In this document: one piece after another, positions 148 through 12,580 of the stretch | Position numbering within the stretch: the stretch's first letter is position 1 | Layout of the letters: the number at the start of each line of letters is the position of its first letter | Assembly (NCBI RefSeq): GCF_000331305.1 | Contig: NZ_KB217481.1 | Coordinates: 218,765-282,764 of the forward strand | Direction of reading: 5' to 3' | Length of the DNA: 64,000 nucleotides | DNA from: Calothrix sp. PCC 7103 | GTDB taxonomy: Bacteria; Cyanobacteriota; Cyanobacteriia; Cyanobacteriales; Nostocaceae | The notes under the pieces: model-generated | What the model was told of the DNA's origin: nothing | Databases searched by the model: none | Seen by the model: the letters and a program-made list of their open reading frames with translations, nothing else | Position numbers and translations under genes: made by a program

Positions 148-209
148 CTTGGCCTTCCTTACTTCCAAGGCTCGATGTTTTCCAAAATACCCTCTCTACT
201 GCCTGAATT

Positions 210-2606
210 GTAAATACCTACCCTTGAAAGTACCCCCTTCCCCCCTCAGAACCGGACGTGCGCCTCGCAACGCATCCGGCTCAAGCAAGTCATAAACTAC
301 TCACTGTTCCAGAGTGAATTTGCTGATGGCAGTACAAATGAACAAGTTGTAGGTTGCCGTAATTATCCCCACCACCTTGGCTTTTTGGCTTTTTATGATG
401 AAGATGTAATTCTTCACCATTAAACAAGGATTCCCCACATATGGGACAAACATATTTTTGCCTATGGGCTATCTTTTGTTTGCTTTTAATGAGTTCGGAT
501 TTGGCTTTAGCCTCCTCGCGTTGTTTCCAGTAATCCCTGAGTTTGGGGTCATCAGGTGATGATTTTCCCTTAACTAAGACATGTCTCTCAATTTTGAACC
601 AAGCGAATTTTAACATATAGGCTCCGGTATTTTTACTACCAAAAACCCACTTATCGTTAGGTCTATCAAGATTCAGTCTTCCCCAATATTTAGCCTTACG
701 CCATTTATCGGACTTATTACGATGGGTATGTTTTATGAACCTTTTTTGCTTTTCATACGACCAATGGTCGAGGGAATTAAAAATTTCCGAGGATACACCA
801 ACTCGAAAATAGTTTGCTTCTCCCCTAATAATAGGGTTGAGCTTCTTAATAACTGCGTCAATTGGCTTACCTTTACAGTTGCGCCATTCTGTACGCAGTT
901 TATTGCGAATGTTTGACACGGATTTCTTACTTGGTTTAATTAGCAGTTTTAGCTCAGTTTTACTGGTTAAATTTTTATAGTGTCTGATGTTAAATCCGAG
1001 AAAGTCAAATCCTTCGCTTAGATGCACTATTTTTGTTTTTTCATCAGACAGGTTAAGTCCCCTTGGCTTCATCCAATCGCTCAGGATTTTCACTGCATTT
1101 TCTGCATCTTCTTTAGACTCACAAAACACCACAAAATCATCTGCAAATCTCACCAATGCCCTTGACGCTCTGAGTTCTCCCTCCTTATTATATTTAATAC
1201 CAAGGGCTGATTCCATACCGTGCAATGCTATATTAGCTAACAAAGGACTGACAACAGACCCTTGAGGAGTACCAGCATTTGTAGGATGCCATGAACCCCC
1301 CTCCATGTATCCTGCTTTGAGCCATTGTTTAATTAATTCACGAGCGGGAAAGCCCGTTAAAAGCTCTAACAGAAAATCATGAGAAATGTTGTCAAAGCAC
1401 CCCCGGATATCAGCATCTACAACCCATTTCTTCCGTTTATTTGGTCGAGCTAAGTTATATATACTAGCAATTGCATCATGGGGGCTGCGCCCAGGTCGGA
1501 AGCCATAACTAGACCGCTCAAAAGTAGCTTCCCATTCGGGTTCTAAGGCATTTTTAACCATTGCCTGTATGGCACGGTCATGTATTACTTGAATTCCTAG
1601 TGGACGTTTCTTACCATTAGCTTTTGGAATGTAAACTCTTCGTGCAGGTAATGATTGCCAAGGAGTATAGTTAGCGATTTTATCAACTAATTTCCCCCTA
1701 GCAGCAGCAGTTTTTACTACCACTTTATCTATACCTGGTGTATATTTCCCTCGATTATGCTGCGTCACTTTTCTAACGCTAACTAGGCGATTTGAGTAGC
1801 TACGTAACATTAATTTCTGGAGCGAGCGAACCTTTTTAAGGTTGCCCTCAGCTTTGGCTCATTTGATTCGCTGTCTCAAATTCTTAACAATCCGATTAGC
1901 TTTGCGCCAATTGACACAATTCCAGTCAGTTTGTCCTTTGGTTCCGTTTACAGTTGCCTGCATCTAACTTGCACCTCGGTTTAAAATTATTACATCGGTC
2001 TTTGAGAGACTCACCTGCTCCCCGTCAGCACTCTTTTGAGTTAGGCAGTTGCCTTATCCACCGGGTTATGGATTCCCCTGACCTTTCGGCATGGTGGCGT
2101 TCGCTTCTGGAAGCATCCTATACCCTCTGGAGAATTAGTCTTCCCTTGCGGGTTGCTTACTGAGAGTTTTAGGCTCCCAGACTCCATAGGGGTTATCACG
2201 TTTCGCACGGATGAGATTTAATTGGATGGTATGCCCTCTCTACGCCGGAGTATTTGGTGTCCCAGTTCAACCTACCAAGAGGTTAAACCTTGACTGAATG
2301 ATTTTGGGGCATTCAGTACATTTACTCGCCATCACTGTATCAGCCTTTTCAGTGACCTTTTCTAACGACGCCTCATCAAGGGTTCACTTATGTTCATCCA
2401 TCCAATCTTTCCTTTGCCCGGTCACATTTTTAGGCTAAATGCTTCCTTGGGCTTTGCTCTCCGCTTCACACATCACCGTTACCAGCAGTGCATGGGAAAG
2501 TTAGGAACAACCTTGGACACTGGGTTGGAGGAGACGGCTCCTCACTCATCTAAAGGAAGCTTTATCTATAGGGGCTTCCAGCCCTTCGTGCGCCTTCGTG
2601 TCGCAC
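210..2606 (-). mobile_element. Group II intron with LtrA-type protein
   Basis: The 5' end on the minus strand reads GTGCGACACGAAGG (first G at 2606), matching the GUGCG consensus of bacterial group II introns. The 3' part holds a typical domain V at about 242-284 (AGCCGGATGCG, then GCACGTCCGGTTCT), followed by a domain VI-like stretch ending TATTTAC at 210. The maturase/reverse transcriptase lies in the domain IV position. The 800 bases between 1811 and 2606 hold RNA domains I-III and no gene on either strand that I trust. Length is about 2.4 kb and it looks complete. The 3' boundary is inferred from the AY rule and could be off by a few bases. Confidence 0.85.
290..1810 (-). CDS. ltrA: Group II intron reverse transcriptase/maturase (HNH)
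   Basis: Intron-encoded protein of 506 residues that helps the intron RNA fold and splice and copies it into new DNA sites. In order it has an N-terminal RT0/RT1 region (PARRVYIPKANGKKRPLGI), RT motifs including DADIRGCFDNISH, GTPQGSVVSPLLANI and the catalytic RFADDFVVF, then a maturase X domain and a C-terminal HNH endonuclease with two CxxC-like pairs (CPICGE, then HLHHKKPKSQGG and HLYCHQQIH). The length is normal for the family and no disruption is visible. Its QG motif (TPQGSVVSP) separates it from the DGR reverse transcriptase 2.4 kb away, which has IGNLTSQ at the same place. Confidence is high that it is an intact intron protein. Confidence 0.95.
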   Translation of the reverse strand: MLRSYSNRLVSVRKVTQHNRGKYTPGIDKVVVKTAAARGKLVDKIANYTPWQSLPARRVYIPKANGKKRPLGIQVIHDRAIQAMVKNALEPEWEATFERSSYGFRPGRSPHDAIASIYNLARPNKRKKWVVDADIRGCFDNISHDFLLELLTGFPARELIKQWLKAGYMEGGSWHPTNAGTPQGSVVSPLLANIALHGMESALGIKYNKEGELRASRALVRFADDFVVFCESKEDAENAVKILSDWMKPRGLNLSDEKTKIVHLSEGFDFLGFNIRHYKNLTSKTELKLLIKPSKKSVSNIRNKLRTEWRNCKGKPIDAVIKKLNPIIRGEANYFRVGVSSEIFNSLDHWSYEKQKRFIKHTHRNKSDKWRKAKYWGRLNLDRPNDKWVFGSKNTGAYMLKFAWFKIERHVLVKGKSSPDDPKLRDYWKQREEAKAKSELIKSKQKIAHRQKYVCPICGESLFNGEELHLHHKKPKSQGGGDNYGNLQLVHLYCHQQIHSGTVSSL

Positions 2607-2837: not shown

Positions 2838-2880
2838 GCTAAAAAATCGACCGCCTAACGGCGGAGAAAAGCAAAAAAGA
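2838..2880 (-). terminator. Rho-independent terminator of first DGR target gene
   Basis: On the minus strand a GC stem (CCGCCGTTAGGCGG) is followed by TCGATTTTTT, about 70 bases past the VR1 end. The same hairpin with the loop inverted, and the same purine-rich spacer, follows the second target gene (5682-5710). The whole post-VR block therefore looks duplicated together with the VR. Confidence 0.75.
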
Positions 2881-2917
2881 AAAAGAGTAAAGAGCAATAG
2901 AGCTAAAGTATAAAGGG

Positions 2918-3838
2918 CTACTGAAGAATCCTCCCAACCCCGCAGACTACGCGAAAACCAAAATAGTAGCTGATAACGTCGCGCCCCGCCCTAAGATTGC
3001 GGTAGCGAGACGCAGAACGGCAGACTTCTGGATCGTTATACCAGGAACCGCCACGCAGTAAAGGATATTTGTTATTTTGAGAAAGATTATCATTATTGTT
3101 GTTAAGCCAAGCACTACCATCCGTTGGCGCCCCTTCGTAATTATCATGCCAATCATCAAGGCACCATTCCCATACGTTTCCATGCATATCGTATAATCCA
3201 AACGCATTTGCCACATTTGCGGCGCCCAGACTTCCTACAGGTGTTGTTTGGTTACGATATTCCCCTTTAGGACCTCGACCATAGGAGCCTGACCATTTAT
3301 TTTTTTTATCATCTGTACCTCTATAATTAGCTAAATCAGTTGTAATTGTCTCACCAAAGTGAAATGGTGTAGTTGTACCTGCGCGGCAAGCATATTCCCA
3401 TTCTGCTTCGCTGGGGAGACGGTATTGTCTTTTTGTATTTGTATAGCTAGCAAGACGCGAGCAAAATTCAACAGCATCGTTCCAAGAGACCTTCTCAACA
3501 GGTAGCTTATAACCTTTAAAATAAGATGGGTCTGGTTTCAAATCGCTGTTAACTCGCAGATGTTGCATATTCGCCACTGCTCGCCATTGTGCTTGGGTGA
3601 TAGGATATTTACCCATAAAGAAGGTTGAAACTGTAACTTGGTGTTGGGGACGTTCATTATTTCTACTACCTTCTTCCGTTTCTGGGGCGCCCATTGTAAA
3701 AGTACCACCCTTTATCAGCACCATCTCTAGTTCAACTCCATTTCCTAAGGGACTTCCAAAAATTAAATTCTCCATCGAAGTGGAACGGGCATCCTTGCCC
3801 GTTTCAAAGTTGGGCGGGCAAGGATGCCCACCCCACAA
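2918..3838 (-). CDS. DGR target protein 1 (FGE/C-type lectin fold), N-terminus remodelled by a MITE
   Basis: Formylglycine-generating-enzyme-like (SUMF1/C-type lectin fold) domain from about residue 40 to the end: MVLIKGGTFTMGAPE, then TQAQWRAVA, LPSEAEWEYACRAG, GLYDMHGNVWEWC, and LRGGSWYNDPEVCRSASR. Such domains are the usual DGR-diversified displays; catalytic FGE activity is not implied. Residues 260-302 are encoded by VR1. The first 33 or so residues, including the start MENLIF, are encoded by a MITE (3744-3877), and homology to target protein 2 begins only at VELEMVLI. Target 2 has about 270 further N-terminal residues, so this gene has probably lost its own N-terminal domain. The ATG of MENLIF or the Met in VELEM are more plausible starts than the first Met at 3838. 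It lies downstream of the TR and could share the RT transcript. Confidence 0.85.
   Translation of the reverse strand: MWGGHPCPPNFETGKDARSTSMENLIFGSPLGNGVELEMVLIKGGTFTMGAPETEEGSRNNERPQHQVTVSTFFMGKYPITQAQWRAVANMQHLRVNSDLKPDPSYFKGYKLPVEKVSWNDAVEFCSRLASYTNTKRQYRLPSEAEWEYACRAGTTTPFHFGETITTDLANYRGTDDKKNKWSGSYGRGPKGEYRNQTTPVGSLGAANVANAFGLYDMHGNVWEWCLDDWHDNYEGAPTDGSAWLNNNNDNLSQNNKYPLLRGGSWYNDPEVCRSASRYRNLRAGRDVISYYFGFRVVCGVGRILQ
2933..3059 (-). repeat. DGR variable repeat 1 (VR1)
   Basis: 127 bp, colinear and gapless with the TR at 4100-4226. By manual alignment it differs at 15 positions and each one is a T on the plus strand of the TR, that is an adenine in the sense direction. Flanks of the block (GCGGGGTTGGG at the 3' sense end, CTGCGTGGCGGTTCC at the 5' end) are unchanged. 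It encodes WYNDPEVCRSASRYRNLRAG and then RDVISYYFGFRVVCG, against the Asn-rich template version. Confidence 0.97.
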
Positions 3839-3877
3839 GAAAATTTTGGGTATTTATTTAATTGGAAGTCCCTAAGT
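3744..3877. mobile_element. MITE-like palindromic element fused to target gene 1
   Basis: About 134 bp bounded by inverted repeats: left CTAAGGGACTTCCAA (3744 on), right, as reverse complement, CTTAGGGACTTCCAA (ending about 3877). The interior contains the paired sequences GGGCATCCTTGCCCG and GGGCAAGGATGCCC. A TA dinucleotide next to each end would fit an IS630/Tc1-type target, but this is not certain. The element supplies the present 5' end of the DGR target 1 reading frame. Confidence 0.6.
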
Positions 3878-4099
3878 CTTCAACAAAATGTAGTCCTGTT
3901 TGGCGGTGTTTGGTGATTGTTAGTCCCATATTTATTTTTATAATATTGTGAAGATGAGATAACTTTTCAGCTTACTTACTAAGCTACCTCACCCAGTTTG
4001 ATTTTCGGATATCGTCACCGACATCTCAGGAACAGGCTGGACTCTTCAATTACACCCTCGACAGATTCCCACCTGCCGACTCTCGCGGTGAAGAGACAT
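3878..4099 (-). other. Spacer (Sp-like) region downstream of the TR
   Basis: About 220 bases follow the TR in the sense direction and carry no gene. In the Bordetella phage DGR the RNA just beyond the TR folds and binds the RT-Avd complex to prime cDNA synthesis, and this stretch is in the right place for that. It includes the pairing-capable segments GCGGTGAAGAGA and CTCGACAGATTCCC. No structure was computed. The left half (3880-3960) is AT-rich and may simply separate the TR unit from target gene 1. Confidence 0.45.
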
Positions 4100-4226
4100 C
4101 CCAACCCCGCAGACTACGCGAAAACCAATATTGTTGTTGATATTGTCGCGCTCCGCCCTATTATTGTTGTTGCGAGACGCAGAACGGCAGTTTTCTGGAT
4201 TGTTATACCAGGAACCGCCACGCAGT
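4100..4226 (-). repeat. DGR template repeat (TR)
   Basis: 127-bp invariant template copied with adenine mutagenesis into VR1 and VR2. Read in the target-gene frame it encodes WYNNPENCRSASRNNNN and then RAERDNINNNIGFRVVCG. The run of AAC/AAT (Asn) codons is the classic DGR design, because mutating adenines in AAY gives many residues and never a stop. The TR begins 20 bases after the RT stop codon, on the same strand. Its 3' flank (ATGTCTC in sense) differs from that of both VRs (AGGATTC and AGGACTC), as expected for donor versus recipient. Confidence 0.97.
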
Positions 4227-4246
4227 CGGGTTCGCCTATCCCCTCT

Positions 4247-5305
4247 CTACTCCCTCGACCATTCGAGTGAAGTAAATATCTGTTGGCGTAATCGCCAAGT
4301 AGCTCCATGTTCTAAATGAGCAAACCAACTTTGAATCGATTGATTTACTTTTTCCCGGCTAATTATACCACGAGCATAGTCTGATTGCAAGCGCCTAAGT
4401 CGGCGCCTTGCCAAATGCAAATTACTACTTCGCACACGAATTCTATCTGAAAACACTCTAAATCCTAAAAAAGTGGCACCGATTTTGGTTGCAAATAATT
4501 GGCTTTTAATTGGATGAACTTGCAGTCTTAATTGAGCTAAATAATTTTCTATAGCTAATCGCGCGTTGGCTAAGAAATCCCAGTCATCTGAAAATAAAGC
4601 AAAGTCATCGACATAACGAAGGTATTTCTTAGCTCTTAGTTGTTCCTTGACAAAATGGTCAAAGCCATTTAAGTAGATATTCGCAAAAAATTGACTAGTT
4701 AAGTTTCCAATTGGTAAACCGCGTCTGCGAGTAACTGGAGTGAGCAAATCATCACCAGGAAAATATTCAATTACGGCTTCTTGTTCATTACTGTTGTCTA
4801 TAATAGTCTCAATTAACCAGAGAGTATCGGAACATTTGATTTTACGAGGTAGTAATTGTTTTAATATGATATGGTCAATACTTGGAAAATACTTTCTGAT
4901 ATCGCACTGGAGTACATAGCGACTATTGCGGGCAAAGTAAGTAAATCGCTTCAATGCTCGATGAGTTCCAAAACCAACTCGATTAGCGTAAGAATCCTGG
5001 ATAAATGTAGACTCAAAAATGGGTAAAATTATATTACATAGAGCATGGTGGACAACTCTGTCTCGATATGGTGCGGCGGAAATAAGGCGACTTTTGGGAT
5101 TTGTTAAGTGAAAGGTTCGGTAATTACCAGGTTGATAAGTTTTATTTGTTAATTCTTTTTGTAAATTAATTAGTTCGGTTTCGAGATGGTAATTAAAATC
5201 TAAAACATTGTCCCGAAATCGTTTACCTCTTTGCGCCTGACGAGTGGCTAAAAGCAGGTTTGAAAACTCTACAATTTAAGGATAGAGATTACCGCGACGC
5301 TTCAT
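4247..5305 (-). CDS. DGR reverse transcriptase, in-frame TAA at codon 10
   Basis: Error-prone RT that copies TR RNA for retrohoming into the VRs. From an ATG at complement 5303-5305 the frame gives MKRRGNLYP, a TAA (5276-5278), then [20 protein letters not shown] and an unbroken RT to 4247. That is 352 codons, the usual DGR size. Motifs (counted from that ATG): CDIRKYF near 133, the DGR-specific IGNLTSQ near 200 in place of the QG motif of group II RTs, and catalytic YVDD near 231. Family members normally read NLYPQI or similar here, so one CAA to TAA change explains the stop. All catalytic motifs lie downstream, so the RT could still be made by reinitiation or a weak alternative start, or it may be dead. 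The ATG lies 6 bases past the avd stop, so the two are surely cotranscribed. Confidence 0.93.
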
Positions 5306-5311
5306 TTTTGT

Positions 5312-5647
5312 TTATCTTTTTTGTTGCTTTATCCAACCACCAAGTTCTACGCCAATTTCATCTATCAGTTTAATTATATATTCATATCGCTCGGCGCAAA
5401 TAAAATCAAAGTCAAGTAACATTCGTGTCTGATACCGTAAAATGTCTAACTGAGTGTTTAAAGACTCTAATTGAGCTAATTTATTTTTGGCATATTTAGC
5501 TTGAATCAACCCATCCAGTATACTGTACAACCCATTAATGATTCTATCTCCTAAAGTAAACTTATGAATTTTGGGCAAGCGCTCGATAACAGGCACATAC
5601 CATTTAATACAATCATAAGTCTTTTGGATGACAGATAGTTCTTTCAT
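5312..5647 (-). CDS. avd: DGR accessory protein Avd
   Basis: Basic four-helix-bundle protein of 111 residues (MKELSVIQKTYDCIKWYVP, HKFTLGDRIINGLYSILDGL, GVELGGWIKQQKR). The pattern KFxLGxRI...LxxLI.A is the hallmark of the Avd/four-helix-bundle family. Avd forms a pentameric barrel that binds the RT and the TR-containing RNA and is needed for mutagenic cDNA synthesis. It sits 6 bases upstream of the RT start, typical of a DGR operon. Length is normal and the frame is intact. The start is an ATG preceded by AT-rich sequence without a strong Shine-Dalgarno. Confidence 0.93.
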   Translation of the reverse strand: MKELSVIQKTYDCIKWYVPVIERLPKIHKFTLGDRIINGLYSILDGLIQAKYAKNKLAQLESLNTQLDILRYQTRMLLDFDFICAERYEYIIKLIDEIGVELGGWIKQQKR

Positions 5648-5681
5648 TTTTAATTATTTTTATAAATCTTAATATTTTACT

Positions 5682-5710
5682 AAAAAAATCGACCGCCGTT
5701 AGGCGGGAAA
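5682..5710 (-). terminator. Rho-independent terminator of second DGR target gene
   Basis: Sense-strand stem CCCGCCTAACGGCGG followed by TCGATTTTTTT. It lies between target gene 2 and avd, so avd-RT-TR expression needs read-through or its own promoter in the 35 AT-rich bases that follow. It is the counterpart of the hairpin at 2838-2880. Confidence 0.75.
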
Positions 5711-5759
5711 AAGAAAAAAAGAAAAAGAATAAAGGGCAATGGAGCTAAGGTATAAAGGG

Positions 5760-7328
5760 CTACTCAAGAGTCCTCCCAACCCCGCAGACTACGCGAAAAC
5801 CAATAATGCCGTCGATATCGTCGCGCTCCGCCCAATTATTGATGTAGCGAGACGCAGAACGGCAGTAGTCTGGAATGACATACCAGGAACCGCCACGCAG
5901 TACAGCATTTACTTTTCGTTGATAAACATTCTCATTCTCGTTATCAAGCCAAGCATTACCATTTGTAGGCGCCCCTTCATAATTATTGTGCCAATCATCA
6001 AGGCACCATTCCCATACATTTCCATGCATATCGTATAACCCAAACGCATTAGCTACGCGAAAAGTTCCTACAGGTGTTGTTTTACGATAGGATTTTCCTT
6101 TGGGAGCATTACCGTAAGTCTCACTACCACGATAGCTAGCTAGTTCTGGTGTAATTGTCTCGCCAAAGTGAAATGGTGTAGTTGTACCCGCACGACAAGC
6201 ATATTCCCATTCGGCTTCGCTTGGTAAAGTGTAAGTTCTGCCTGTGTACTCTGATAGACGCAGGCAAAATTCAACAGCATCGTACCAAGAGACGGACTCA
6301 GCGGGTCGGTTATCGCCTTTAAAATAAGATGGGTCTGGTTTTAGTTCTATATTTACCTGGGGTAACTGGGCTACAAATCTCCACTGCGCTTGAGTTATAG
6401 GGTACTTGCCAATGAAAAAAGGCTGTACGGTGACTCTATGTTGGGGACTCTCACTACTATGATATCCCTGTTCATTTTCTGGCGCCCCCATTTCAAAGCT
6501 TCCCCCCAGTATTGCGACCATTTCTATTTTTAATGGGGCTGGTTTACCTGGGGTTTCACTTAAATATTCGGTAAAATAAAATGCTTCTTTTTTTTCTCGC
6601 TTGATGATTTGCCCGTTTATATTGACTGTGACTGTTTCAAATTGAAAGGGTTTTAATTCTTCTGGTTCGTCGTCGGTAATAACTGCTACGTTGTATTCAA
6701 AGGGTTTTAGCTCTACTCCCAATGCTGCGGCGATTATTTGCTCTTCTTCATTGAGGGGGTGTAGTTCGTCTTTTGATAATAATGGCTTAAAGCCTCGCTC
6801 TTGTAAAAAATCGTCATACTTCTCTGACAATTCTCTCCATTCGATATCTTTTTCAGATAAGGAAAGTATTAACTTCCGCAATTTCTCCTTGAGAGTATCA
6901 AATTTTTTATCATCCGCAATTAAATATGTTAGTGGTGTCCAACGATATTCATTATCATTTTGATTTAAGCGATTGGAAATATACTGGAACATAAAATTAT
7001 CCAGTTCGTGGAGTCGTTGTTTTCCAAATTTCTCCTCTAAGCAGCGAAGTAAAGCATTTCTTGTTTCCGACTCCATCTCATACAGGTCATAACCAATAGT
7101 TTCGCACAACCCCGATAGTAAAACGTCCGCAACACCATACCAGGGACAACTGGGGACAAAGTTCTCGCGCAGACAATAAAGTAAATCGGAAGTGAGGGTG
7201 AGAGGAAAAGCGGCATGGTAGGCTAAATACAGCGTTTCTTTCCCGTAGCGTTGCTCAATAACTCGAATGCGACGGGTTGTTAAATCTTCTCTGTTGCTGG
7301 GTTGGGTTACAAATGGGGAATTTGACAT
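5760..7328 (-). CDS. DGR target protein 2 (N-terminal unknown domain plus FGE/C-type lectin fold)
   Basis: 522 residues. The N-terminal half (1-265) has a conserved-looking helical region (RIRVIEQRYGKETLYLAYHA, FPLTLTSDLLYCLRENF) whose family I cannot name. It probably couples the protein to the MoxR/vWA partners, which is inference. The C-terminal half is an FGE-like C-type lectin fold: MVAILGGSFEMGAPE, GKYPITQAQWRFVA, LPSEAEWEYACRAG, GLYDMHGNVWEWC, LRGGSWYVIPDYCRSASR. Residues 476-518 are VR2. It stands at the head of the DGR block, downstream of the conflict operon and separated from it by the IscB insertion. It is intact and the better candidate of the two for a functional diversified receptor. 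Confidence 0.92.
   Translation of the reverse strand: MSNSPFVTQPSNREDLTTRRIRVIEQRYGKETLYLAYHAAFPLTLTSDLLYCLRENFVPSCPWYGVADVLLSGLCETIGYDLYEMESETRNALLRCLEEKFGKQRLHELDNFMFQYISNRLNQNDNEYRWTPLTYLIADDKKFDTLKEKLRKLILSLSEKDIEWRELSEKYDDFLQERGFKPLLSKDELHPLNEEEQIIAAALGVELKPFEYNVAVITDDEPEELKPFQFETVTVNINGQIIKREKKEAFYFTEYLSETPGKPAPLKIEMVAILGGSFEMGAPENEQGYHSSESPQHRVTVQPFFIGKYPITQAQWRFVAQLPQVNIELKPDPSYFKGDNRPAESVSWYDAVEFCLRLSEYTGRTYTLPSEAEWEYACRAGTTTPFHFGETITPELASYRGSETYGNAPKGKSYRKTTPVGTFRVANAFGLYDMHGNVWEWCLDDWHNNYEGAPTNGNAWLDNENENVYQRKVNAVLRGGSWYVIPDYCRSASRYINNWAERDDIDGIIGFRVVCGVGRTLE
5775..5901 (-). repeat. DGR variable repeat 2 (VR2)
   Basis: 127 bp, gapless with the TR. Thirteen differences were counted, all at T on the plus strand (sense A). 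The changes differ from those in VR1, so the two VRs were diversified independently. It encodes WYVIPDYCRSASRYINNWAE and then RDDIDGIIGFRVVCG. Confidence 0.97.
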
Positions 7329-7428
7329 ATATTAATCATCAGATTACATGGTAGGTGGGAAACTCAGAGTCTTTAGACCTGAGAGGGAAGCGACCCAACA
7401 GGTTTTAACCTGTTTGAATCTTAATTTA

Positions 7429-8709
7429 TTATGAATATGAGTAACCATCTTTTTTATGGATAAGTTTGCAATATTTGTGTGAAATTCCTTGCACTAAACC
7501 TGCTTTAGTTGAGATGTTGAAACTACCAGTAGAACGTGTTGCAATTCGACCAATGTAAACACCAACTTTATTACCTGTTTTGACTATAGCTTTTACTATA
7601 TCACCAGTTTGAAACCCATGTACCAATTTGATTCGTGGTACATACCTTGTTGGAAACCCGTGTTTGTCAGTTCTACACATTTGGCGTGTACCATGACCTT
7701 TTGCAGCTATTAACAATGGCTTAACTCCTTTAATATTTAATATTGGTATCGATTTCCCAACACATGCAGCATCAATCCAATGGGTCTTACTCAAACCTTG
7801 TTGACTACGGTTAAATTTAGTTAACCCACCGCTACCAGTTTCAACAGGTAAGCCAGTTGCTTTTAATGCATTCAGTAAAGCAAATCTAGTAGTGTTAACT
7901 GCTGCTGCATCGGCTAACGGTCGCGAGCAAAGTTTGAGTATCGATTCTAGCTTTTTAGTATCTTTTTTCAAGAAATCTTTGATATCTTGAGTACCTTTCT
8001 TTAAGTTACATTTCTCACAGCTTAAGGTTAGGTTCGATATTGAATTAGATCCACCTTTTGAACGTGGGCGAATATGTTCTATTTGTAGAGGCACATGTTC
8101 TACACCACAATAAGCGCATTTTCTGTTCCATTTTTCTAGTAAATATTCACGCACTTCGTAACCAGCAAGAGTACCTTGTTGATACTCCTTGCCTTGAATA
8201 TCCGGATTCTGCATTATTTGCATATCGAATTTAACTAACTCCTGACTAATTGAATCAATCAATGCTAGTTTTTGTAAACGCTTTACCCATGTCAAAATAT
8301 TAACAATTCGACTTTGAAGACTTGGCGGTATCCATCCTTCGTTGCGCTTACGATTATTAAATCTTGGGGCACGGTAGCGAGTCTTGCGATTTCTTCGACT
8401 TCTTCGTAATTGTCTACGCGAAGTCAAAGCATCTCTAATTTGAAAACCCCTATGCTGTAGTTCTGCTGCAAAAATAACTTCACCCGTTGTGTCGTTGACC
8501 AATGCAAACCCTGTGTTTTTTGCACCTGGGTCAATCTTAATTCTTAGTGGTTGAACTTCTATATCGGGCTTCGCTTCTTTAAGAATTAAAGTGAACGGAA
8601 ACTGTCTAAATATAGCAGCTTTTTTATTTTTTAATAGCTGTCTAGCTTGTGCTGGATGGATGGGGTTAAGCGGTTTTTTGTTTGTATCAAGTAAAAATAT
8701 TTTGGACAT
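7429..8709 (-). CDS. iscB: IscB RNA-guided DNA endonuclease
   Basis: About 426 residues from the ATG at 8709, which has GGAGGGA seven bases upstream (the earlier in-frame Met at 8721 lies in that leader). IscB is the ancestor-like relative of Cas9 that uses an omega RNA guide. Visible parts: PLMP-like N-terminus (KIFLLDTNKKPLNPIHPAQA), RuvC-I (KIDPGAKNTGFAL), Arg-rich bridge helix (RRQLRRSRRNRKTRYR), HNH with its zinc-binding pair (CAYCGVEH, IEHIRPRSKGGSN, CEKCNLKKG), RuvC-II (VNTTRFALLNAL) and RuvC-III (KTHWIDAACVG), then a C-terminal PAM-interaction-like domain. The catalytic D, H and E residues appear present and the frame is unbroken. Confidence 0.95.
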   Translation of the reverse strand: MSKIFLLDTNKKPLNPIHPAQARQLLKNKKAAIFRQFPFTLILKEAKPDIEVQPLRIKIDPGAKNTGFALVNDTTGEVIFAAELQHRGFQIRDALTSRRQLRRSRRNRKTRYRAPRFNNRKRNEGWIPPSLQSRIVNILTWVKRLQKLALIDSISQELVKFDMQIMQNPDIQGKEYQQGTLAGYEVREYLLEKWNRKCAYCGVEHVPLQIEHIRPRSKGGSNSISNLTLSCEKCNLKKGTQDIKDFLKKDTKKLESILKLCSRPLADAAAVNTTRFALLNALKATGLPVETGSGGLTKFNRSQQGLSKTHWIDAACVGKSIPILNIKGVKPLLIAAKGHGTRQMCRTDKHGFPTRYVPRIKLVHGFQTGDIVKAIVKTGNKVGVYIGRIATRSTGSFNISTKAGLVQGISHKYCKLIHKKDGYSYS

Positions 8710-8714
8710 AAGTC

Positions 8715-8962
8715 CCTCCATTTCTGGGTAATGTTAGCTTTGGTAATGTTATTAGTCGGTACTATCTAAAGGACACGTTCTTAACTCAATACAAATGTTT
8801 AATCCTTCAGTTCTAGAGCAGGAAACTAGCTTCGGATTTCCTGGTAGGTCTTTAACTCTTGCTAATAACGTAAGTATCCGGAGATACTTAACCTGGTCAA
8901 CTAATCCTAAAAGTCGAGACTTCAAGCTATTGCTGGAAGCTCAGTCCCTTCAGGGCTGAGTC
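8715..8962 (-). ncRNA. Omega RNA (HEARO-type) of IscB
   Basis: About 245 bases upstream of iscB with no credible ORF but several stems: CTCAG-CCCTGAAGGGA-CTGAG at the 5' end, AAGTATCTCCGGATACTT, and AGGAAATCC / GGTTTCCT-like pairing further on. HEARO/omega RNAs occupy exactly this place and carry the guide at their 5' end. The guide would come from sequence just upstream, that is the 3' end of the vWA gene. No fold was computed. Confidence 0.75.
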
Positions 8963-10159
8963 GTTAACATTCCCCTGTGAATTTTGTTTTACTACCATTT
9001 GTAAACTGGTTGGTTCGTAGGTTAACATTTTACCATCGAGTATTTTGTGTATCTCCCAAGCAGAATTATGGCGCCAACGTTTGGATGGCAAAGGATTAAG
9101 CCAAATTAGTTGCCGAACACAAGGGGATAATTTATGTAAAAATTTCCAGATTCCCTGTATTAGTTCTTGGCTATAAGTGCCTGTTGCGGCGCCTGCATCG
9201 CTTAAGATTACAGCAATAGTGCGATTTTTATGTAATTTGGGTAAAAGATTGGTGATTAGTTCGGCTTTTGTTGGATGATGCCATTGGTACAAATATTCGT
9301 CTGGGTAACTTGTAAACCGATAAACGTTTGCGGGGGTAATGCGAGCTTGGTCAATTGCTTGAGTAAAAGGCTGGAGGGCGGCAAAAAATGGTATCATTGC
9401 CAAATTATCATCAATCAGTAATAAAAGCTCGGCTCGACGAAGTTTGACAGGTCGCATTACTATGTCACTAAAAAGACCTTCTTGCTCAATTAACTCAATT
9501 GTTGCTTCAATATCTAATTCGTATTCTCTGCCAATTGGTACTGGTCGTTTTAAAAATTTCCAAGTGTCACGAACATCTTGTTGCTTTATCGGGAAATTTT
9601 TAGGGGTAAGGGTATATTTGTTACTAGTATCTTCAAAAAGAGCTTTTTCTAGAGGATTTGAAGTAGCTTTTACCGCAGTTGGAACTTCTGTATTGTTTTC
9701 GTCTGATGGTTGAGGTGATGGTGTTCCTGGTTTTTTGGGTGTTTTTCTAGGTGGAATTTGGGGGAGGTTTGCTGCTGGTTGCACTACAGGGGGAGGATTT
9801 TTTGGTGGTGTTTCCTCTGGTTCTTTATCCATTTTGGCGCCATGCTGTTGGATATTATCTGTAAAAGCTTCAAACGCACGGTCGAAAATACTAGCATCAT
9901 AATTAGCGCTGGGTTTGACCCAAAGTAACCGACATATCCGTTTTAAGTCTTCCCATCCATTTAAACCATACCCCTGAGCAACTGCTTCTTGTAATAGTTC
10001 GTACTGTTCTAATGTTAAAGCCATTCCTGCTCTACGCAATTCTTGAAATAAATCTAATAATAAAGATTGATACTGCTCTAGGGTCAGGTAAATTCCAGTT
10101 TCTATTAATTTTTTTGGAGAAGACCTACTGGAGAAAATTTTATTTTGAGAATTATTCAT
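8927..10159 (-). CDS. vWA-like (CoxE/SAV_2336-type) conflict-system protein
   Basis: 410 residues. N-terminal helical region (LTLEQYQSLLLDLFQEL, repeated as LTLEQYELLQEAV), a Pro-rich linker at about 120-165, then a vWA-like domain from about 225 (AELLLLIDDNLAMIPFFAAL, VYRFTSYPDEYLYQW, IAVILSDAGAATGTYS, IWLNPLPSKRWRHNSAW). The metal-site DxSxS is degenerate (DDNLA). vWA proteins paired with MoxR ATPases act as adaptors or assembly factors, and in multicellular bacteria such pairs sit with DGR-diversified FGE-like proteins. The last ten codons (SALKGLSFQQ) overlap the omega RNA hairpin, so the IscB insertion appears to have supplied a new C-terminus and stop. Only a short native tail may have been lost. 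Confidence 0.8.
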   Translation of the reverse strand: MNNSQNKIFSSRSSPKKLIETGIYLTLEQYQSLLLDLFQELRRAGMALTLEQYELLQEAVAQGYGLNGWEDLKRICRLLWVKPSANYDASIFDRAFEAFTDNIQQHGAKMDKEPEETPPKNPPPVVQPAANLPQIPPRKTPKKPGTPSPQPSDENNTEVPTAVKATSNPLEKALFEDTSNKYTLTPKNFPIKQQDVRDTWKFLKRPVPIGREYELDIEATIELIEQEGLFSDIVMRPVKLRRAELLLLIDDNLAMIPFFAALQPFTQAIDQARITPANVYRFTSYPDEYLYQWHHPTKAELITNLLPKLHKNRTIAVILSDAGAATGTYSQELIQGIWKFLHKLSPCVRQLIWLNPLPSKRWRHNSAWEIHKILDGKMLTYEPTSLQMVVKQNSQGNVNDSALKGLSFQQ

Positions 10160-11239: not shown

Positions 11240-12580
11240 TTACTTCCAATGTTGCCAATATGGTGCAAAGTCATCAAAACCATATTCTGATTTAAACACG
11301 ATTTTGCATATATAATCGATTACAGAATCAGGATTTTCTCCAACTTGTTCAACCTGTGTATACGTATCATCATTCACCTCATAACCTATTTGATTATCGA
11401 GTTTCTCATTTTTTATCTCATCAAGCCAATTGTTGACTTCACCTTTAGTAATTTGCGTTAATACCAATGGTTTCAGACTTTCTTGATTTGAATAATTAAT
11501 AGAACATGGAAATTTATCCATTATGAATACAACCAAACAACGTTTTCTATTAAGATTTTGAATAGAATTAATTTTATCCAGTAGTTGAGAATAAAAATCA
11601 TTTAATTTAGCTAATATCTCCGGAGATAAAGAGTCACGAGAAATAATAGAAATAACGACAGATTTGGTTGTATAAAATTCAGCCAAAGCTTCAATTACAT
11701 TTGCAGGTTCTAACTTTTTTACTTTTATATATTGTTTAAATTCTTCCCAAAAATAATCGAAGCTAGCTTTTATCCGAAAATCAATAGAGATTTTTATTTT
11801 TTGAGCTTTTTCAAAATCGCCTATGCTTTTTTCTAAAACCCATAAAAACCAAGGACGAATTTCTGTTTGTGTTTGAATTCTAAAAAATCCTACTCGATGT
11901 GTACCAATTTGACTCTTAAAATCTTGTTTCTGAGACTGACAGTTCAATCTGCGTAATAATTTTAATTTTTCTTCTGTTAAATCTTCTTTATTAATGGTTA
12001 AATGTCGATTTATATTATCTTGATTTTGGCTTGAATCTTGATAATTATTCTTCTTTTTATTGCAATATATTTTTAATTTATCTTCAACAAGCTTGTAATT
12101 CTCTTCATGCTCTTCATATTTTTTGCTCTTTAATTTAAGATTGAATTTCTGTAAACGAGGATTTTCTAATTTTCCAGCCTTAGTCCTTGGGCGTTTATCT
12201 TCTAATAATTCTAGTTCTCTTAAAAGGTATATAGCATTTCTTACTCTTTCTATTGTATAACCATCAAGCGTCATCTCTCTTTTCTGTTGGTCAGCATTCT
12301 TTTGGTATTCGTCATAACAACCCTTTGTTTTTTCCTCCAATCTAGTTTCCGTGCTGTATGTCTTGATTAGCTTAAGTAAAGCTTTTGATTCGCCAGATAC
12401 TTGCAGTTCACAACTGTTATCAGACCATATTGCCGTAACTTCTTTGTGATAAGAGTTGTTTGCATTTATATTTGATGCAAGTTCTAATAAAGCTTTAACA
12501 AGAGCCTTGACGTATAGCTGTTCTAGCTCTCCTTTAGTAGGCTTACGCCTCCCTAGTTTTTTGGTACTACTATCAATCAT
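11240..12580 (-). CDS. HTH/inactive-STAND-like protein, first gene of the conflict operon
   Basis: 446 residues. N-terminal 1-150 is helical and basic (RRKPTKGELEQLYVKALVKA, YTIERVRNAIYLLRELELL), resembling a winged HTH region. From about 220 there is a STAND-like but P-loop-less domain (LLRRLNCQSQKQDFKSQIGT, GFFRIQTQTEIRPWFLWVLE, CLVVFIMDKF). Inactive STAND modules of this kind occur at the front of MoxR-vWA conflict operons, where they are thought to relay signals. The gene starts the leftward operon behind a 480-base region containing palindromes. Family assignment rests on pattern only. The orientation, spacing and codon use match the two downstream genes. Confidence 0.6.
   Translation of the reverse strand: MIDSSTKKLGRRKPTKGELEQLYVKALVKALLELASNINANNSYHKEVTAIWSDNSCELQVSGESKALLKLIKTYSTETRLEEKTKGCYDEYQKNADQQKREMTLDGYTIERVRNAIYLLRELELLEDKRPRTKAGKLENPRLQKFNLKLKSKKYEEHEENYKLVEDKLKIYCNKKKNNYQDSSQNQDNINRHLTINKEDLTEEKLKLLRRLNCQSQKQDFKSQIGTHRVGFFRIQTQTEIRPWFLWVLEKSIGDFEKAQKIKISIDFRIKASFDYFWEEFKQYIKVKKLEPANVIEALAEFYTTKSVVISIISRDSLSPEILAKLNDFYSQLLDKINSIQNLNRKRCLVVFIMDKFPCSINYSNQESLKPLVLTQITKGEVNNWLDEIKNEKLDNQIGYEVNDDTYTQVEQVGENPDSVIDYICKIVFKSEYGFDDFAPYWQHWK

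What the first reader, a model, noticed from the sequence alone, without database searches (positions are those of the whole stretch)
2918..7328. A diversity-generating retroelement with one template and two variable repeats
TR 4100-4226, VR1 2933-3059 and VR2 5775-5901 are each 127 bp and align without gaps. All 15 VR1 and 13 VR2 differences, by manual alignment, fall at sense-strand adenines of the TR, the fingerprint of DGR mutagenic retrohoming. The TR encodes an Asn-rich C-terminus while the VRs encode different residues at those codons. Avd and a DGR-type RT (IGNLTSQ, YVDD) are present. One cassette therefore feeds two separate receptors.
Basis: partly seen in the sequence, partly recalled or inferred. 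Interest (0 to 1): 0.95.

Follow-up and report, generated by a model that had tools for sequence, protein, structure and literature searches.

The report
Two-target mutagenic retroelement, probably recently crippled
A cyanobacterial genetic device that rewrites two receptor-like genes from one template is really there and seems to have worked recently, but its copying enzyme now carries an early stop; comparing it with relatives suggests how such devices may tell target from template.

Summary
Avd, a DGR-type RT and two CLec/FGE-fold targets lie beside MoxR, vWA-like and EAD4 genes. This is a new member of the known cyanobacterial DGR kind.

Both VRs carry two template-lineage substitutions, so both were probably rewritten after the split from relatives. 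One cassette fed two targets; whether it still does is doubtful.

New lead: just past the copied segment, VRs carry a triplet (usually GGA) complementary to the template RNA's spacer in 71 of 90 VRs, against 1 of 64 TRs. A like contrast holds in 47 of 55 BPP-1-like phage pairs, not generally in a third phage clade or ten other phages. It may be an RNA-read address that makes homing one-way. Key DGR papers are not held, so its novelty is open.

The parts
4100..4226 (-). Template repeat (TR), 127 bp
   Evidence: downstream spacer conserved in 64 loci
2933..3059 (-). VR1, 3' end of target gene 1; 15 differences from TR, all at TR A
5775..5901 (-). VR2, 3' end of target gene 2; 13 differences from TR, all at TR A
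2918..3838 (-). Target 1 (VP1), FGE-sulfatase/CLec-only protein; the native start region (as in L051, L052, L053) is separated by the MITE-like repeat, so translation needs a start inside or after the repeat
5760..7328 (-). Target 2 (VP2), helical N-terminal region without a Pfam match plus FGE-sulfatase/CLec domain
4247..5305 (-). DGR reverse transcriptase gene; in-frame TAA at 5276-5278 (codon 10); intact in L051 and L052
5312..5647 (-). Avd
   Evidence: Pfam bAvd, NCBIfam NF033474
3941..4099 (-). Spacer part of the DGR RNA, 3' of TR: covarying structure (40 predicted pairs in 39 sequences, 30 with compensatory changes); stem P1 pairs 4090-4095 with 4042-4047, with a U-U mismatch at 4096/4041
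   Evidence: no Rfam family at gathering level here
4038..4041 (-). Spacer UCC (4041-4039) beside P1, then A4038, a possible priming adenosine by analogy with BPP-1 (inferred)
2929..2931 (-). Candidate address triplet GGA of VR1, just past the copied segment (TR has TGT at 4096-4098)
5771..5773 (-). Candidate address triplet GGA of VR2
2851..2917 (-). Pyrimidine-rich tract after the VP1 stop codon, then hairpin 2851-2864 (terminator-like)
5693..5759 (-). The same kind of tract after the VP2 stop codon, then hairpin 5693-5706
8927..10159 (-). vWA-like protein (Pfam match below cutoff); its last codons run into the IscB element
   Evidence: relatives L051, L052
10201..11283 (-). MoxR-like AAA ATPase
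11240..12580 (-). EAD4 effector-associated-domain protein; the gene in the same place in relative L053 is trypsin plus iSTAND
7340..8970 (-). IscB (7429-8721) plus HEARO/omegaRNA (8728-8968) element inserted in the vWA/VP2 overlap; absent from that site in L051 and L052
3750..3870 (.). MITE-like repeat with terminal inverted repeats, many copies in the genus, inserted in the start of VP1

Best explanation
This is a diversity-generating retroelement of the cyanobacterial kind on a 322-kb contig of an 11.6-Mb cyanobacterial genome. Shown: one TR, two VRs in FGE/CLec-family targets, adenine-only differences, two TR-lineage substitutions present in both VRs, a stop at codon 10 of the RT frame, and mobile elements in the locus. 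Inferred: both VRs were rewritten from the present TR since the split from the nearest relatives; the TR RNA was copied by RT-Avd with errors at A and the cDNA replaced the 3' ends of both targets (established DGR biology); the targets probably sense ligands for the neighbouring MoxR/vWA/EAD4 gene set; mutagenesis is now most likely reduced or lost, and recently. Proposed, with comparative support: a VR is recognised because the few bases just past the copied segment (GGA...) are complementary to the spacer strand of the DGR RNA, while the TR is mismatched there. That would keep transfer one-way and let one cassette serve several targets, including distant ones.
For: A-only differences. Orthologous cassettes in L051, L052, L049 and L050, and a remnant in L053. 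Two derived substitutions (C to T, not at template adenines) in the window TR are carried by both window VRs (4 of 4), while the aligned TRs and VRs of relatives have C (one gap, L051 VP1). RT stop; intact RT in L051 and L052; 10 amino-acid changes unique to the window RT against 3 (L052) and 5 (L051). Address: 71 of 90 VRs fully complementary at the triplet against 1 of 64 TRs; slid registers give 0-1. TR and VR agree at index 18 in 89 of 90 rows even where it varies, but VR does not follow TR at 20-21. Loci with spacer U at the middle position have VR A in 4 of 5; loci with spacer C have only-A VRs in 0 of 59 (Fisher 8e-6, not corrected for relatedness). BPP-1: 9-nt perfect VR-spacer match that the TR lacks; BPP-1-like phages 47 of 55. 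Second set of places: GGA in 33 of 45 VR-class and 0 of 19 TR-class.
Against: Pairwise RT dN/dS with the window is still 0.09-0.13, so the RT may work through an unusual start, or the stop may be an assembly error; no reads were available. Two other DGR RTs with open frames in the genome (67-68% identical) could act in trans. The address rule was not general in a third phage clade or in ten diverse phages; 19 of 90 clade VRs do not fit. Shuffling spacers among loci still gives a mean of 52 fits against 67, so most of the fit is shared sequence; it could come from one ancestral difference. Independent covariation is limited to a few lineages, and in L071, L079, L082 and L104 the TR itself already has the VR's base at the covarying position (the L071 TR is fully complementary).
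Confidence: 0.82

Rival explanations
1. The cassette is fully active today: RT is made by initiation at a non-standard codon after the stop, or another genomic DGR RT (L020 or L021 locus) copies this TR in trans.
For: VRs show no non-adenine change against TR over 127 bp. The RT frame after codon 10 is otherwise open, with dN/dS 0.09-0.13. Two related RTs with open frames exist in the genome, and a remote VR (L024), 3.2 Mb from the L020 cassette, differs from the L020 TR at 15 adenines and 2 other bases, so distant targets can be rewritten.
Against: No ATG/GTG/TTG before codon 118. 77 of the 80 homologue matches listed begin at RT residue 1, so the lost N-terminus is conserved. No cross-use of TR and RT is demonstrated.
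Confidence: 0.3
2. A fossil: the DGR died long ago and VR1/VR2 are frozen receptors kept by selection.
For: Stop in RT, MITE-like repeat in VP1, IscB between vWA and VP2. Sister loci also decay: deletion in the L051 TR, loss of RT, Avd and TR in L053, twin targets without a nearby RT in L022 on the same contig.
Against: Zero non-adenine differences in 2 x 94 positions, and two TR-lineage substitutions present in both VRs, argue for homing after the split from relatives.
Confidence: 0.25
3. The triplet complementarity is not an address but shared ancestry or coding constraint: VRs inherited one C-terminal sequence and TRs another.
For: VRs and TRs are each homologous families; most rows carry one spacer triplet (TCC in 82 of 90); the rule is not general.
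Against: Loci with spacer UUC mostly use GAA where loci with UCC use GGA. In 47 BPP-1-like phage pairs the VR 7-mer is one sequence (partly by selection) while TR shows 13 different 7-mers, none equal to it. Unrelated sequences in the two clades show the same relation.
Confidence: 0.4
4. Not a DGR: chance repeats or ordinary gene conversion between duplicated genes.
For: VP1 and VP2 are paralogues with similar 3' ends.
Against: Adenine-only differences against a TR beside RT and Avd.
Confidence: 0.01

Closest known systems
Cyanobacterial DGRs, clade 5E (Vallota-Eastman 2020, PMC7517822, passages; Dore 2024, PMC10907252, abstract, sections 6 and 7, section 11 part 1 of 2)
   Same: RT cassette, CLec targets, remote variable proteins, MoxR/vWA/effector-associated neighbours; the Fischerella NIES-4106 plasmid DGR named in PMC7517822 (AP018301) is one of the relatives found here (L049).
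   Different: RT carries an early stop; IscB element and MITE-like repeat in the locus. Clade placement here is by similarity, not by a tree.
Thiohalocapsa PB-PSB1 and clade 5A DGRs (Dore 2024, same sections)
   Same: Two-target loci (short CLec-only plus long N-terminal extension), transposon-damaged cassettes, ternary-type neighbours.
   Different: Different bacteria; the mobile elements described in the sections read are transposons and MITE-like arrays, not IscB.
BPP-1 DGR (Guo 2011, PMC3240598; Unlu 2026, PMC12875486; passages of both)
   Same: A-directed copying, IMH/IMH* difference, GC hairpin after VR, structured spacer that primes cDNA.
   Different: Gene order; no pyrimidine tract; in phages the hairpin lies 4-34 bp from VR, here about 70 bp.
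TvpA, Treponema denticola variable protein 1 (PDB 2y3c)
   Same: VP2 residues 364-515 match it at E 4e-16 by sequence, and the model at E 3e-13 by fold.
   Different: Different host; 24% identical in the fold alignment. The best match in both searches is PvdO (5hha), not a DGR protein.

Membership tests
Diversity-generating retroelement | TR/VR near-repeats differing only or mainly at TR adenines | tested here: met
   15 of 15 and 13 of 13
Diversity-generating retroelement | DGR-type RT in cis | tested here: met
   91% identical to the L052 DGR RT, 67-68% to the two other genomic DGR RTs
Diversity-generating retroelement | Intact RT reading frame | tested here: not met
   TAA at codon 10; it is a DGR by descent, its present activity is in doubt
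Diversity-generating retroelement | Accessory protein (Avd) | tested here: met
   NF033474, E 1e-40
Diversity-generating retroelement | VR at 3' end of a CLec-fold target | tested here: met
   family for VP1 and VP2; fold for VP2 only
Diversity-generating retroelement | Ongoing mutagenic homing | not testable with these tools
   needs reads or cultures; past homing inferred
Clade 5E cyanobacterial DGR | RT falls in clade 5E by phylogeny | not tested
   no reference tree built; 75 of the 80 loci kept from the homologue scan are cyanobacterial by record title
MoxR/vWA ternary conflict system | MoxR ATPase, vWA protein and EAD or VMAP partner side by side | tested here: met
   AAA and EAD4 above Pfam cutoffs; vWA below cutoff in the window (17.0 of 26.4 bits) but above it in the fused L021 homologue
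MoxR/vWA ternary conflict system | Canonical VMAP domain or anti-phage activity | tested here: inconclusive
   no hit named VMAP; activity not testable here
IscB/omegaRNA element | IscB with RuvC-HNH layout plus omegaRNA, empty site in relatives | tested here: met
   NF040563 E 3e-137, HEARO RF02033, empty sites L051 and L052

The most novel reading that the evidence does not exclude
DGR targets carry an RNA-readable address. By analogy with BPP-1, the spacer strand next to the priming adenosine is joined to the 5' end of the cDNA; it is perfectly complementary to the VR just past the copied segment but mismatched to the TR. Spacer RNA plus cDNA would then form one continuous antisense strand for the target, which would explain one-way homing, the IMH/IMH* difference, and how one cassette serves several and remote genes. 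In the cyanobacterial clade the address is followed by a pyrimidine-rich tract of mostly 7-8-nt period, absent after TRs.
Probability: 0.45. Interest if true: 0.85.

Novelty: new member of a known kind. Interest (0 to 1): 0.58.

Why it matters
How the mutagenised cDNA gets into the VR is called incompletely understood in a 2026 paper (PMC12875486, passages read). A pairing rule seen in two distant DGR lineages would make that step, and the one-way transfer from TR to VR, directly testable, and would let genomes be scanned for hidden targets. The locus also shows, beside an intact relative, how a DGR can lose its engine while its diversified targets remain.

Tried and rejected
I first thought the IscB element had split one fused vWA-CLec gene, because the L021 homologue is fused. 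Relatives L051 and L052 already have two overlapping genes, so the element lies in the overlap. I considered L022 (twin CLec targets on the same contig) as a trans-target of this TR: it has 18 and 19 non-adenine mismatches against the window TR, so no. L023 has 15 adenine and 15 non-adenine mismatches against the L020 TR and was not counted as a live target. The third TR difference from L052 (A to T) was dropped as uninformative, because an A in TR may change in a VR anyway.

The unguided longest-run test of VR-spacer pairing gives runs of 7 or more in 46 of 55 phage pairs (157 of 1100 shuffles) and in 39 of 90 clade pairs (217 of 1800 shuffles). In the clade the best run is often not at the fixed register, and in 22 of 90 the TR pairs as well there, so the fixed-register test is the one used. 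The first version of the second-set test had a register fault and was replaced.

Rows dropped: L140 (1 of 65 loci, 1 of 91 pairs; judged by eye to lack the shared spacer); 4 of 67 phage loci with partial RT matches not scanned (L201, L203, L205, L208); 6 of 37 loci of the third clade not given to (L209, L210, L220, L237, L238, L239). TR-VR pairs were picked by A-bias (70% or more; 60% or more in phages), so A-bias in those loci is not independent evidence. In one search the 47 loci are those in which VR TGACCA and spacer GGTCAGCC were found, so VR identity is partly by selection; TR non-identity is not. In one search VR-class means a pyrimidine-rich 3' flank without spacer motif; four places stayed unclassified (three with GGA).
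Full report
Observation. All 15 (VR1) and 13 (VR2) differences are at sense adenines of TR; the chance of this is 9e-11 and 3e-9. The window sits on a 321,658-bp contig (C10) of an 11.58-Mb genome in 12 contigs.

Anatomy. Reading along the minus strand: EAD4 protein, MoxR-like AAA, vWA-like protein, an IscB/omegaRNA element, target 2 (VP2) with VR2, Avd, RT, TR with its spacer, target 1 (VP1) with VR1, then a group II intron gene. VP1 and VP2 carry FGE-sulfatase domains (E 1e-53 and 5e-54). VP2's best solved match is PvdO (5hha); it also matches the Treponema DGR variable protein TvpA by sequence (E 4e-16) and fold (E 3e-13). The model has mean pLDDT 66: residues 1-220 are low (block means 30-65), 221-380 are at 75-96, and 381-520, which include the VR, at 54-88.

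Relatives. Orthologous cassettes were found in two genomes of the same genus (L051, L052) and on plasmids of Fischerella NIES-4106 (L049) and Nostoc UHCC 0926 (L050); a remnant is in L053. L052 looks intact. L051 has a deletion inside TR. L053 has lost RT, Avd and TR, with VP2 running into TR-flank sequence, as expected from recombination between VR2 and TR.

Recent activity. Against the L052 TR, the window TR has three substitutions. Two are C to T at positions where all aligned TRs and VRs of L051, L052, L053, L049 and L050 have C, apart from a gap in L051 VP1 at one of them. Both window VRs carry T at both positions. Copying from the present TR into both VRs after the split is the simplest reading.

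Damage. The RT frame starts with ATG at 5303-5305 and meets TAA at 5276-5278 (codon 10). L051 and L052 have a sense codon there and 352-residue RTs. After the stop there is no ATG, GTG or TTG until 4954. In 77 of the 80 homologous loci listed, the match begins at residue 1. The window RT has 10 unique amino-acid changes against 3 (L052) and 5 (L051); dN/dS between it and three relatives is still 0.09-0.13, which fits a recent lesion or residual function. A MITE-like repeat of about 120 bp, with many copies in the genus, interrupts the start of VP1. The IscB element (about 7340-8970) lies in the vWA/VP2 overlap and is absent from that site in L051 and L052.

Other DGR parts of the genome. Two more DGR RTs lie on contig C7 (L020, L021; 67-68% identical). 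A kinase-CLec gene (L024) 3.2 Mb from the L020 cassette differs from the L020 TR at 15 adenines and 2 other positions; the latter two lie at the 3' end. Remote targets, including kinase ones, are already reported for cyanobacteria (PMC7517822, passages). Twin CLec targets lie on the same contig as the window (L022); no DGR RT was found near them and no closely matching TR in the genome.

Wider comparison. A scan with seven aligned RTs counted 417 relatives and kept 80 loci. With five further loci, 65 of 85 gave 91 TR-VR pairs; L140 was dropped, leaving 64 loci and 90 pairs. (a) The region 3' of TR folds into a conserved RNA: in the 39 of 64 sequences given to the fold, 40 predicted pairs, 30 with compensatory changes. 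In the window no Rfam family reached threshold there. (b) After VRs, but not TRs, lies a pyrimidine-rich tract: 78 of 89 VR flanks (one of the 90 too short) are at least 70% pyrimidine, against 0 of 64 TR flanks and 18 of 805 flanks of mechanically defined ORFs of 100 codons or more in the same 84 loci; motif spacings of 7 or 8 nt make 218 of the 366 listed. A GC-rich palindrome follows in 45 of 89, against 1.8% of shuffles.

Address rule. Align TR and VR at their 3' end and call the last copied base index 19. Index 18 agrees between TR and VR in 89 of 90 rows, including 20 rows where it is not G. Index 19 is A in TR in 76 rows and differs in VR in 7, of which three (L086, L110, L138) are poorly aligned. 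At index 20-21 VR does not follow TR. At index 20-22 the VR is fully complementary to the spacer triplet beside stem P1 in 71 of 90 rows, the TR in 1 of 64 loci; slid registers give 0-1, and shuffling spacers among loci gives a mean of 52 and a maximum of 62 in 5000, against 67 observed in the 86 ungapped rows. So most of the fit is shared sequence and only part is locus-specific. Where the spacer has U in the middle (L071, L079, L082, L118, L122), the VR has A in four loci and G (wobble) in one; where it has C, no locus of 59 has only A. This is not corrected for relatedness. In L071, L079 and L082 the TR shares the A, and in L104 (spacer UCA, VR TGA) the TR shares the T, so L118 is the cleanest case.

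Prototype and phages. In BPP-1 (L141), VR TGACCACCT is a perfect 9-nt complement of the spacer ending at its 56th base, an A; the TR has TGCCCATCA there. That A56 is the priming adenosine is recalled, not from a call; that an internal spacer adenine primes cDNA is stated in PMC12875486 (passages), and that the 21-bp IMH element sets directionality in PMC3240598 (passages). Of 67 BPP-1-like viral loci 63 were scanned and 55 gave one pair each. In 47 of 55 the VR motif and the spacer motif were both found: VR is TGACCAC in all 47, the spacer is its complement over 7 nt in 45 and over 6 nt in two (L190, L191), and the TR shows 13 different 7-mers, never TGACCAC. In the other eight the VR motif was not found in the stretch examined; in six of them a spacer motif was. 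The rule was not general in a third clade (31 of its 37 loci plus L206 given; 4 gave no pair): five loci (L206, L211, L212, L213, L225) share a 6-nt match that the TR lacks, and no such shared match is seen in the rest. Among ten diverse phages, two (L251, L253) show a 7-nt match at the boundary that the TR lacks, which is about what shuffles give (7 or more in 157 of 1100).

Second set. From 60 family genomes I took 99 places: 4 weak or unaligned, 22 already in the first set, 5 repeats, 68 new and distinct. VR-class places have GGA in 33 of 45, TR-class in 0 of 19 (Fisher 2e-8). Several misses look like one-codon misregister. Three VR places read GAA or a shifted GAA (L292, L329, L339); their spacers were not looked for.

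What is known. Dore 2024 (PMC10907252; abstract, sections 6 and 7, section 11 part 1 of 2 read) describes clade 5E cyanobacterial DGRs as diversifying likely sensors of MoxR/vWA ternary systems, and, for other clades, two-target loci and transposon-damaged cassettes. Vallota-Eastman 2020 (PMC7517822, passages) names the Fischerella plasmid DGR and remote targets. So the locus is a new member of a known kind. Among the papers listed by the searches (some lists were cut), no title or abstract start states VR-spacer complementarity, and the passages read do not mention it. The most relevant mechanism papers (recalled: Naorem 2017; Handa 2018, 2021, 2025) are not held, so its novelty is open.

Noticed in passing
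window 7340-8970: IscB plus omegaRNA element inserted in the overlap of the vWA and VP2 genes; by general IscB knowledge (recalled) its guide would match the vWA flank just upstream, which is similar in the empty sites of L051 and L052.
   Followed up: partly
window 2851-2864 and 5693-5706: Terminator-like hairpins after VR1 and VR2 share stem CCGCC/GGCGG but have loops TAAC and GTTA (plus strand), each the reverse complement of the other, as if one hairpin had been flipped.
   Followed up: no
window 201-1810: Group II intron domain and RT/maturase-HNH gene downstream of the VP1 gene.
   Followed up: no
L022 (G000:C10:48000-62000): MoxR plus two CLec targets with VR-like ends and pyrimidine-rich flanks, but no DGR RT nearby and no closely matching TR found in the genome: probably orphan DGR targets.
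   Followed up: partly
L020 9594-12125: The cis target of the L020 DGR seems broken: the long ORF stops before the VR, while the VR still differs from its TR mainly at adenines (15 of 18).
   Followed up: no
L053 6444-8286: VP2 runs into TR-flank sequence and RT, Avd and TR are missing, consistent with deletion by VR2 x TR recombination.
   Followed up: partly
window 3941-4115 and the 38 other sequences of alignment A3: Covarying DGR spacer RNA with no family match in Rfam 15 for the window; a candidate RNA family.
   Followed up: partly
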